Assembly (NCBI GenBank): GCA_003647765.1
Contig: QMNM01000080.1
Location: 1-6,858, forward strand
DNA length: 6,858 nucleotides
Direction of reading: 5' to 3'
Origin: Candidatus Cloacimonadota bacterium
Lineage (GTDB): Bacteria > Cloacimonadota > Cloacimonadia > JGIOTU-2 > B8-G9
Position 1 is the first letter of the stretch, and each line of letters opens with the position of its first letter. The notes under the pieces were generated by a model, which saw nothing but the letters and a program-made list of their open reading frames with translations, was not told where the DNA came from and searched no databases. The position numbers and the translations under genes were made by a program. Of this stretch, positions 1 to 6,858 are shown one piece after another.

Positions 1-365
1 CAGATAGTTTATTTTTAATTACAAGTTCAACACCAACGGATAATTATCAATCAAATATGCCACATTCCTTTGAATTGAAACAGAACTATCCTAATCCATT
101 TTTCATCGGAAGTGGATATGGCGAACTTCCTAAAACTCGTATTACTTACCAACTGCCAAAAGCATCTAATGTGAAAATTGTTGTGTATAATATTAAAGGG
201 GAATTGGTTAAGACACTTGTTAATGAGCGGAAAGATGCTGGTTATTATAATGTAATTTGGAACGGCAAGAATGATAAATCTAGGTTAGTTGGAACTGGAA
301 TATATTTCTATCAACTAAAATCAGGTAATAATTCCAAGATAAAGAAGATGCTCCTATTACGCTAA
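1..365 (+). CDS. C-terminal end of a secreted protein with FlgD-like Ig / Por-type (T9SS-like) sorting domain, 5' truncated
   Basis: The frame is open from base 3 to a TAA at 363-365, so the gene starts before the window; the ATG at 57 is very probably internal. What remains is a short linker rich in Ser, Thr and Asn, then a C-terminal domain of about 95 residues. It begins LKQNYPNPF, continues through the TRITYQLPKAS and VVYNIKGE strands, then LVNERKDAGYYNVIWNGK and GIYFYQLKSG, and ends in the basic KIKKMLLLR. This order is the hallmark of the C-terminal FlgD-Ig/Por secretion domain found on exported enzymes and adhesins in FCB-group bacteria, where it directs export or anchoring and may be cleaved. 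The loop after NPF, usually about NPSTT, is replaced by a longer Gly-rich stretch. The passenger domain lies outside the window, so the protein's activity is unknown. Domain call secure; secretion route inferred from the family. Confidence 0.85.
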   Translation, partial: DSLFLITSSTPTDNYQSNMPHSFELKQNYPNPFFIGSGYGELPKTRITYQLPKASNVKIVVYNIKGELVKTLVNERKDAGYYNVIWNGKNDKSRLVGTGIYFYQLKSGNNSKIKKMLLLR

Positions 366-3100: not shown

Positions 3101-3572
3101 AAATAGACCAAATTGGAATGAATATTTTATGCAAATGGCAAGGCTTGTATCTACGCGGTCAACTTGTTTAAGGCGAAAAGTAGGTGCTGTGATTGTGCGT
3201 GATAATCAGATTTTATCAACAGGATATAATGGAGCTCCAAAAAATGTACCTCATTGTAGCGAACTAGGTTGCTTACGAGAAAAACTGAATGTTCCATCAG
3301 GAGAAAGACACGAATTGTGTCGCGGAGTTCACGCAGAACAAAATGCAATCATACAGGCCGCAGTGCAAGGTGTATCAATAAAAAATAGTACTATATACTG
3401 CACTAATTTACCTTGCATAATCTGTGCAAAAATGATAATTAACGCTGAAATAAAACAGGTAATTATTGCAGAAACTTACAAAGATACAATGACTATCAAT
3501 ATGTTCAAAGATGCTGGTGTACAAGTAATTCTATTTGATAAGGAGACAGATACTATAAAGAAAATTGTGTAA
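3093..3572 (+). CDS. comEB: dCMP deaminase, ComEB family
   Basis: The 159-residue soluble zinc enzyme deaminates dCMP to dUMP, feeding dTMP synthesis. Zinc-binding and catalytic residues are intact: His80 and Glu82 in HAEQNAII, and Cys108 and Cys111 in PCIICAK. The N-terminal [22 protein letters not shown] segment, the [12 protein letters not shown] loop (44-55) and the extra Cys/His region CSELGCLRE (55-63) are typical of the dCMP-deaminase branch rather than cytidine or tRNA-adenosine deaminases. The length is normal. The start at 3093 lies inside the end of the glycosyltransferase gene (8-base overlap), which suggests co-transcription and translational coupling. A GGAGG at 3075-3079 lies 13 bases upstream, rather far. 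The functional pairing with a glycosyltransferase looks incidental. Allosteric control by dCTP/dTTP is known in the family but cannot be judged here. Confidence 0.93.
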
Positions 3573-4164: not shown

Positions 4165-6825
4165 ATGAAAAAAGAGATAATCTCAATGGATGGCAATACT
4201 GCTGCATCTTATGTAGCTTATGCATTTAGCGAAGTAGCTGCTATCTATCCAATTACACCATCTTCACCAATGGGAGAGCTTGCTGATGCCTGGGCAGCAC
4301 AAGGAAGGAAAAATATATTCGGTCAAACAGTTGATGTAATAGAAATGCAGTCAGAAGGAGGAGCTTCTGGAGCTGTTCATGGTGCGCTTTCAGCAGGTGC
4401 TTTAACAACTACTTTCACTGCTTCACAAGGTCTAATGTTGATGCTACCCAATATGCACAAAATCGCAGGAGAGATGCTTCCAACAGTGTTCCATGTTGCT
4501 GCTCGTTCACTTGCCTGTCAGTCATTATCAATTTTCGGAGACCATTCTGATGTAATGTCAGCAAGGAACACAGGTTTTGGTTTAGTTGCTGCTGGTTCAA
4601 TTCAGGAAATTATGGATCTTGCTGTTATTTCTCATCTTGCAACCTTGAAATCAAAAGTGCCGTTCCTCAATTTCTTTGACGGTTTCAGAAGTTCGCACGA
4701 AATTCAAAAAATTGAAGCTATACCTTATGATGTAATGGCTGAACTGCTTGAAATGGAATATGTGGAGGATTTCCGCAATCGTGCAATGAGACCTGATAAA
4801 CCAGTTCTTAAAGTGGGTGCTCAAAATCCTGATGTCTATTTTCAATGCAGAGAAACAGTGAACAAATACTATCTTGTTACTCCACAAATCGTCCAGGAAT
4901 ATATGGACAAATTTGCAGATAAAATCGGAAGAAGATACAATCTCTTTGACTATGTGGGCGTGCCTGATGCTGAAAAGATTATTGTATCAATGGGCACATC
5001 CACAGAAACAATAGAAGAAACTGTAAATTATCTCAATAAGAAAGGTGAAAAAGTTGGTGCAATAAAAGTGCGACTTTATCGTCCGTTCTCTGCAAAAGCA
5101 TTCGTTTCAGCCATTCCTGATACAGTAAAGAAGATCGCTGTCCTTGACAGAACAAAAGAGCCCGGCTCTCTCGGAGAACCGCTTTACCTTGATGTTGCTG
5201 TTGCACTTTCCGAAAAGAATATCAAAGTCATTGGCGGTAGATATGGTCTCTCATCAAAAGAATTTACACCAACAATGGTTAAAGCTGTATATGACCATCT
5301 TGACGGAAAATGCACACATGGATTTACAGTCGGTATAACTGACGATGTTACTGGCACATCAGTAGAACCTGTTGAAGAAATTGATGCTGAACAGGAAGGC
5401 ATCATTCGTTGTAAATTCTGGGGATACGGCTCTGATGGAACTGTTGGTGCGAATAAGAACTCAATCAAAATCATCGGCAACAACACAGACCTTTATGTTC
5501 AAGGATATTTTGAGTATGATTCAAAGAAATCAGGTGGTGTTACAATTTCTCATCTAAGATTTGGGAAAAATAAAATCCAATCACAATATCTTCTTAATAA
5601 TGTGGACTTTGTCGCACTTCATAAGTCATCGTATATTGGGCGATTTGATATTCTAAAAGGTATCACAAAACGCGGAACTTTTCTTTTGAATTCCAATTGG
5701 AAAGCAGAAGAGGTTTTTGAAAATCTGACAGAGGATATGCAAAAAATTATAATTGATAAGCATATCAAAGTTTATAATATTGATGCTCTTAAAATAGCAC
5801 AGGAAGTTGGACTTGGAGAGCGAATAAATACGGTTATGCAAGTAGCATTTTTCAAGATTTCAGGAGTATTGCCAGAAGAGAAAGCGATTCGGTTGATTAA
5901 AGATTACATCAAAAAGACATTTGAGAAAAAAGGCAAAGAAGTTGTTGAAATGAACTGGCGAGCTGTTGATAGAGCGGTTTCTGCTATTGAGGAAGTTCCA
6001 ATTCCTACTGAGCTTGTGGGAATCAAATCTGCATCAATTCCAAAACTAATTCCTGATAATGCAAATGAATTCACAAAAAATGTTATTGAACCAATTATGC
6101 ATCTTAAAGGGAACGAAATTCCAGTATCAAACCTGCCTTATGATGGACAAATTCCAACAGGGACAAGCAGATTAGAAAAGCGTGGAGTTGCTCCACAAGT
6201 GCCTAAATGGATTCCAGAAAACTGTACCCAATGTAATCAATGTTCATTCATCTGTCCTCATTCAGCGATTCGTGCAAAACAGATAGACCAAAAAGATTTA
6301 GAGGATGCACCTGATGGCTTTGTTACGCTTAAATCAAATACAAAGAATAATAGAGACCTTAGATATCGTGTTCAGGTTTATATTGAAGATTGTGTAGGAT
6401 GTGGAAACTGTGCCAATGTATGTCCGGCTAAAGAAAAAGCATTAGTTATGGTGCCTCTTGAACATGCTCGTGCAGATGGCGAAACAGAAAAAGCCGTATT
6501 CTTTGACAGTCTTCCTGATAATGTGTTAGATGGTATAAAAAAAGAGACAGTAAAAGGTAGTCAGTTCCTTGTGCCATATTTTGAGTTCAGTGGTGCTTGT
6601 GCTGGTTGTGGTGAAACTCCTTATGTAATATTGGCTACACGACTATTTGGCGATAGAATGATAATTGCTAATGCAACAGGTTGTTCATCAATTTATGGTG
6701 GAACTTTCCCGACAGTTCCGTATTGTAAGAATAAACAAGGTGTTGGACCAACCTGGGCAAATTCATTATTTGAAGATAATGCAGAATATGGACTTGGGAT
6801 GCGTCTCGCAATTGATGCAAATTGA
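4165..6825 (+). CDS. nifJ: Pyruvate:ferredoxin (flavodoxin) oxidoreductase, interrupted by an in-frame TGA after codon 886
   Basis: The single-chain enzyme oxidises pyruvate with CoA to acetyl-CoA and CO2, passing electrons to ferredoxin or flavodoxin in the cytosol. Domain I has YPITPSSPMGE with Thr31, Glu64 and Arg114, positions matching pyruvate/TPP-site residues of the Desulfovibrio africanus enzyme. The gamma-type domain begins near residue 416 (FWGYGSDGTVGANK). The ferredoxin-like domain carries two CxxCxxCxxxCP sets, Cys687/690/693/697 and Cys743/746/749/753. Domain VI starts GACAGCGETPY with Cys812 and Cys815, then Cys840 in ATGCSS. Family members run to about 1,170-1,200 residues; here TGA stops the frame after MRLAIDAN, yet the downstream frame still reads like nifJ. 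The truncated product lacks the fourth proximal-cluster Cys (near 1071 in D. africanus) and the Mg-TPP region, so it should be inactive alone. The start is backed by AGAGGTG five bases upstream. Identity is certain; functional status is not. Confidence 0.95.
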   Translation: MKKEIISMDGNTAASYVAYAFSEVAAIYPITPSSPMGELADAWAAQGRKNIFGQTVDVIEMQSEGGASGAVHGALSAGALTTTFTASQGLMLMLPNMHKIAGEMLPTVFHVAARSLACQSLSIFGDHSDVMSARNTGFGLVAAGSIQEIMDLAVISHLATLKSKVPFLNFFDGFRSSHEIQKIEAIPYDVMAELLEMEYVEDFRNRAMRPDKPVLKVGAQNPDVYFQCRETVNKYYLVTPQIVQEYMDKFADKIGRRYNLFDYVGVPDAEKIIVSMGTSTETIEETVNYLNKKGEKVGAIKVRLYRPFSAKAFVSAIPDTVKKIAVLDRTKEPGSLGEPLYLDVAVALSEKNIKVIGGRYGLSSKEFTPTMVKAVYDHLDGKCTHGFTVGITDDVTGTSVEPVEEIDAEQEGIIRCKFWGYGSDGTVGANKNSIKIIGNNTDLYVQGYFEYDSKKSGGVTISHLRFGKNKIQSQYLLNNVDFVALHKSSYIGRFDILKGITKRGTFLLNSNWKAEEVFENLTEDMQKIIIDKHIKVYNIDALKIAQEVGLGERINTVMQVAFFKISGVLPEEKAIRLIKDYIKKTFEKKGKEVVEMNWRAVDRAVSAIEEVPIPTELVGIKSASIPKLIPDNANEFTKNVIEPIMHLKGNEIPVSNLPYDGQIPTGTSRLEKRGVAPQVPKWIPENCTQCNQCSFICPHSAIRAKQIDQKDLEDAPDGFVTLKSNTKNNRDLRYRVQVYIEDCVGCGNCANVCPAKEKALVMVPLEHARADGETEKAVFFDSLPDNVLDGIKKETVKGSQFLVPYFEFSGACAGCGETPYVILATRLFGDRMIIANATGCSSIYGGTFPTVPYCKNKQGVGPTWANSLFEDNAEYGLGMRLAIDAN

Positions 6826-6858
6826 AAACAGTTGAGGTATAATATAGATAAGCTTCTA
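6826..6858 (+). pseudogene. nifJ: Continuation of the nifJ frame after the in-frame TGA, cut by the window end
   Basis: Translating past the TGA in the same frame gives KQLRYNIDKLL, with no further stop before the window ends. Intact family members have after the GMxLA motif a stretch like DxxRxxLxxxIxxL, so these eleven codons look like the true continuation of domain VI. The stop falls where an Arg is common, and CGA to TGA is one transition. No start codon or ribosome site is evident here, so a separate downstream ORF is unlikely to begin within these bases. Confidence 0.6.

What the first reader, a model, noticed from the sequence alone, without database searches (positions are those of the whole stretch)
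6823..6858. In-frame TGA interrupts an otherwise intact nifJ, with homologous frame continuing downstream
All visible pyruvate, TPP and Fe-S residues are conserved up to codon 886 and there is no decay or frameshift upstream, yet the gene stops about 300 codons early. The frame after the TGA (KQLRYNIDKLL) resembles the normal continuation, and the stop sits at a position commonly held by Arg, so a CGA to TGA transition explains it. Possibilities are a recent nonsense mutation in a redundant copy, strain heterogeneity or sequencing error, or readthrough. The lost part carries the fourth ligand of the proximal cluster and the Mg-TPP motif, so truncation should abolish activity.
Basis: partly seen in the sequence, partly recalled or inferred. 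Interest (0 to 1): 0.6.

Follow-up and report, generated by a model that had tools for sequence, protein, structure and literature searches.

The report
Probable draft-genome error inside nifJ
A stop codon appears near the end of a DNA fragment inside an otherwise normal pyruvate-oxidising enzyme gene; the rest of the gene is intact on another fragment of the same draft genome, so this is most likely a base-level error or minor-strain variant, not new biology.

Summary
In detail: nifJ (pyruvate:ferredoxin oxidoreductase, 4165-6822) stops at TGA 6823-6825 and the frame after it is homologous. The window is a whole contig (C106, 6858 bp) of a 360-contig, 89%-complete draft genome whose closest named relatives are mostly labelled Cloacimonadota or Aminicenantes. 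The missing C-terminal codons, with the TPP motif and last Fe-S cysteine, lie intact and in frame at the start of contig C12. The contigs share 6 bases (CTTCTA); the joined gene has 1175 codons, close to relatives' ~1180. The stop position is Arg in 107 of 108 relatives and a stop in none. The C-terminal part is not decayed and no second NifJ was found. UGA is an ordinary stop here: 73 of 371 long ORFs end in TGA, prfB keeps its UGA-dependent frameshift, and no tRNA-Sec, SelB or UCA-anticodon tRNA was found. A second single-copy core gene, pyrG, carries an in-frame TAA mid-gene. Two different, undecayed stops point to sparse consensus errors or minor-strain alleles. A real, very recent nonsense mutation is the main rival; recoding is very unlikely. 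Reads would decide but are not available here. Interest is low.

The parts
4165..6822 (+). nifJ, pyruvate:ferredoxin oxidoreductase, codons 1-886 (N-terminal three quarters)
   Evidence: TIGR02176 1392.7 bits over cut-off, Pfam POR_N, PFOR_II, POR, EKR, Fer4; 82% identical to closest relative
6823..6825 (+). in-frame TGA at a position that is Arg in 107 of 108 relatives
6826..6858 (+). continuation of the nifJ frame (KQLRYNIDKLL) up to the contig end; last 6 bases CTTCTA are the first 6 of contig C12, where the frame runs on for 279 codons (the first two shared) to a normal TAA

Best explanation
nifJ is an ordinary, single-copy, full-length (about 1175-codon) pyruvate:ferredoxin oxidoreductase gene that this draft genome splits over two contigs. 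The TGA is a base-level consensus error, or a minor-strain allele that entered the consensus, beside the place where the assembly broke inside the gene. Shown: the split, the in-frame intact remainder, the absence of decay, the use of UGA as a stop, and a second in-frame stop in another core gene. Inferred: that the base at the TGA is not what the dominant population carries, because no reads can be examined.
For: Window is a complete contig ending 33 bases after the TGA. C12 starts with the same 6 bases and continues in frame with 279 codons matching TIGR02176 906-1167; the joined length agrees with relatives. None of 108 relatives has a stop there. C-terminal versus N-terminal identity ratio 0.926, inside the 0.84-0.94 range of relatives. 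pyrG, single copy in the bin, also has an in-frame TAA (C113:3205), inside the GATase domain, where relatives mostly have Leu. About 4.7% of single substitutions in nifJ create a stop, so two in roughly 0.85 Mb of screened sequence would need only about one wrong base per 20 kb (rough estimate). About half of sampled contig ends (91 of 186) match repeats elsewhere, but the C106/C12 break does not, which fits low coverage or polymorphism as cause of the break (inference).
Against: No read coverage or quality was available. The six other long ORFs ending within 60 bases of a contig end appear to be natural gene ends, so contig ends here are not generally full of false stops, and the pyrG stop is in a contig interior. 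The bin's base error rate was not measured independently. Only part of the genome was scanned, and contigs under about 3 kb read as N.
Confidence: 0.72

Rival explanations
1. A genuine, very recent nonsense mutation fixed (or at high frequency) in the sampled population, making a truncated, inactive NifJ; pyruvate oxidation would fall to other enzymes.
For: One substitution from AGA or CGA makes TGA. A 2-oxoacid:ferredoxin oxidoreductase of the separate-subunit type is encoded on C19 and a gamma-subunit-like stretch on C298, so partial substitution is conceivable.
Against: No decay at all downstream; no second NifJ found; none of 108 relatives has a stop at this position; pyrG, which is essential in most bacteria (general knowledge), shows the same kind of stop.
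Confidence: 0.24
2. UGA is read through or recoded here (near-cognate readthrough, a suppressor tRNA, or selenocysteine), giving full-length PFOR from the interrupted gene.
For: The frame after the TGA is open and under constraint.
Against: Position is Arg, never Cys or Trp, in relatives. UGA ends 73 of 371 long ORFs, with a median of 7.5 codons to the next stop; prfB retains AGGAGGTATCTTTGAC, the frameshift that depends on UGA being a stop. No UCA anticodon among the tRNAs typed (35 detected), no tRNA-Sec over threshold, best selB hit is a 402-aa EF-Tu-sized frame under cut-off. Relatives have no stop there, and the pyrG stop is TAA, so no one codon is recoded.
Confidence: 0.02
3. C106 and C12 come from two different strains or organisms and only appear to join.
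For: The overlap is only 6 bases.
Against: The junction is in frame and of the right length; both parts resemble the same relatives in the usual proportion; G+C 34% and 32%; each half of NifJ occurs once in the bin.
Confidence: 0.02

Closest known systems
NifJ / pyruvate:ferredoxin (flavodoxin) oxidoreductase, TIGR02176 (solved relatives: PDB 6CIN, 1B0P, 7PLM)
   Same: All domains, Fe-S cysteines and TPP motif, over two contigs
   Different: Only the in-frame TGA and the contig break
In-frame stops from consensus errors or minor-strain alleles in draft metagenome-assembled genomes
   Same: Isolated stops in intact, single-copy conserved genes (nifJ and pyrG)
   Different: Not confirmed at read level; no paper describing this exact case was found in the held library

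Membership tests
NifJ / PFOR (TIGR02176) | score over curated cut-off with all domains | tested here: met
   1392.7 bits against 911.35 for the window part; the rest of the model, 906-1167, on C12
NifJ / PFOR (TIGR02176) | TPP/Mg motif GDGW...NTGG and C-terminal proximal-cluster cysteine (PCINHG) | tested here: met
   present on C12, residues 970-1008 and Cys1079 of the joined frame; ligand role from general knowledge of the D. africanus enzyme
NifJ / PFOR (TIGR02176) | uninterrupted reading frame | tested here: not met
   TGA at codon 887 as assembled
Selenoprotein (UGA = Sec) | tRNA-Sec and SelB in the genome | tested here: not met
   no tRNA-Sec over threshold; selB best hit 194.7 bits under cut-off 242, EF-Tu-sized; bin 89% complete
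Selenoprotein (UGA = Sec) | Cys (or Sec) at the homologous position | tested here: not met
   Arg in 107/108 relatives, Ser in one
UGA sense-codon genetic code | UGA not used for termination; RF2 lost or changed; UCA tRNA present | tested here: not met
   73 ORFs end in TGA, prfB with UGA frameshift, no UCA tRNA found
Consensus error or minor-strain allele | reads disagree with the assembled base | not testable with these tools
   no reads available

The most novel reading that the evidence does not exclude
The population really carries UGA in its only NifJ and makes full-length enzyme by regulated readthrough, so that a central metabolic enzyme is controlled by stop-codon leakage.
Probability: 0.01. 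Interest if true: 0.7.

Novelty: not a real feature. Interest (0 to 1): 0.07.

Why it matters
It matters mainly as a caution: gene loss or pseudogenisation should not be inferred from a single stop next to a contig end in a draft genome. Here both the remainder of the gene and a second unrelated stop in a core gene suggest that the break says more about the assembly than about the organism. If the stop were real, the organism would lack its main pyruvate-oxidising enzyme.

Tried and rejected
Second NifJ in the bin: none. UGA recoding: rejected by stop usage, prfB, tRNA and SelB searches. Old pseudogene: rejected, no relaxed constraint. General excess of false stops at contig ends: not seen; ORF stops per 50-base bin from the contig end were flat and the six others within 60 bases of an end look like natural gene ends. 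Other in-frame stops: the candidates checked are mostly neighbouring genes in one frame; only pyrG is a clear interruption. Longer overlap between C106 and C12: none beyond 6 bases. A second assembly of the species: none among the genomes offered as relatives; the genome-contig scan gave at most 78% identity and may leave out the window's own genome; the viral contigs pattern scan found nothing. Literature: nothing on this case; PMC13082233 names pyruvate:ferredoxin oxidoreductase as a step of the Cloacimonadota propionate pathway.

Full report
The observation. The ORF at 4165-6825 encodes 886 codons of a pyruvate:ferredoxin oxidoreductase (NifJ) and ends in TGA at 6823-6825. It scores 1392.7 bits against TIGR02176 (cut-off 911.35), covering model positions 2-883 of 1167, with the expected Pfam domains up to the second ferredoxin cluster region. 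The next 11 codons, KQLRYNIDKLL, align without a gap to the continuation in relatives; 8 of 11 residues agree with the closest one.

What lies beyond. The window is the whole of contig C106 (6858 bp) of a draft genome with 360 contigs, 1.97 Mb, 88.8% completeness. A search of that genome with TIGR02176 finds the missing part at the first bases of another contig, C12:43-834, model positions 906-1167, without a stop. C12 begins CTTCTAAAAATCGGG and C106 ends ...GATAAGCTTCTA: six shared bases, and the frame runs through. The joined frame has 1175 codons including the TGA; relatives have about 1180 and align across the junction without a gap in the closest case. C12 carries GDGWAYDIG and NTGG (TPP/Mg site) and PCINHG (last proximal-cluster cysteine, by general knowledge of the D. 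africanus enzyme). So the gene is complete in the bin apart from one codon.

What the codon should be. In 108 homologues the position is Arg 107 times and Ser once; no homologue has a stop. Arg codons in the nearest relatives are mostly AGA or AGG, and AGA is the commonest Arg codon of this gene.

No recoding. 73 of 371 long ORFs in about 0.6 Mb of this genome end in TGA, with a median of 7.5 codons to the next in-frame stop. The RF2 gene prfB has the classical programmed frameshift, AGGAGGTATCTTTGAC, which requires UGA to act as a stop (the mechanism is general knowledge). Among the 35 tRNAs detected, those typed include none with a UCA anticodon. No tRNA-Sec passes its threshold, and the best SelB match is an EF-Tu-sized frame under the cut-off.

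No decay. Identity of the C-terminal part to relatives, relative to the N-terminal part, is 0.926; among relatives themselves the ratio runs from 0.84 to 0.94. Third codon positions differ about two to eight times as often as first and second ones in both parts. The gene has been under selection for full-length protein until very recently.

A second case. I screened 93 contigs (0.85 Mb) for long frames interrupted by one stop. The candidates checked are nearly all neighbouring genes in one frame or ORFs with short tails. One is real: CTP synthase pyrG on C113 has TAA at 3205, inside the glutaminase domain, and pyrG is single-copy in the bin. Relatives mostly have Leu there (TTA in four), one substitution from TAA. 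Two core genes, two different stop codons, both undecayed: this fits sparse base errors or minor-strain alleles in the consensus. About 4.7% of substitutions in nifJ make a stop, so roughly one wrong base per 20 kb would suffice (rough estimate).

The contig break. About half of the sampled contig ends (91 of 186) match sequence elsewhere in the sampled genome, against 38 of 400 interior controls; neither the C106 nor the C12 end does. The break in nifJ is therefore not repeat-driven, which leaves low coverage or polymorphism (inference); either raises the chance of a wrong base. Against this, other stops near contig ends look like natural gene ends, so position alone is weak evidence.

Verdict. 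Most likely (0.72) the TGA is a consensus error or a minor-strain allele in an ordinary nifJ. A real, very recent nonsense mutation (0.24) cannot be excluded without reads. Readthrough or recoding (0.02) has no support. The finding is ordinary.

Noticed in passing
L274 (G000 contig C113) 1990-3690, stop at 3205: CTP synthase pyrG, single copy in this genome, has an in-frame TAA inside the glutaminase domain where relatives mostly have Leu.
   Followed up: yes
L296 (G009 contig C178), TGA at locus position 1767: In a relative of the same order, pyrG has TGA at the Cys of the glutaminase GICLGM motif (GI*LGM). That genome has tRNA-Sec (UCA) and SelB on one contig, so a selenocysteine CTP synthase is possible; no clear SECIS hairpin was seen in a quick fold, and a TGT/TGC to TGA error is equally possible.
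   Followed up: partly
contig ends of G000, e.g. L119 1-215 and L279 1-272: Many contig ends share dispersed repeats of about 40-200 bases at 85-100% identity (91 of 186 ends against 38 of 400 interior controls). Nature of the repeat not determined.
   Followed up: partly
L048 (G000 contig C1, 60 kb) 1-20000: The largest contig of the bin looks like a phage: DNA polymerase I, RecA-like, primase, DnaB-like helicase and Cas4/RecB-like proteins, judged by eye from translations.
   Followed up: no
L056 (G000 contig C9) 1241-2330: prfB with the classical programmed +1 frameshift AGGAGGTATCTTTGAC.
   Followed up: yes
window 3-365: C-terminal end of a larger, probably secreted protein with a FlgD-like / CHU_C-like domain.
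   Followed up: no
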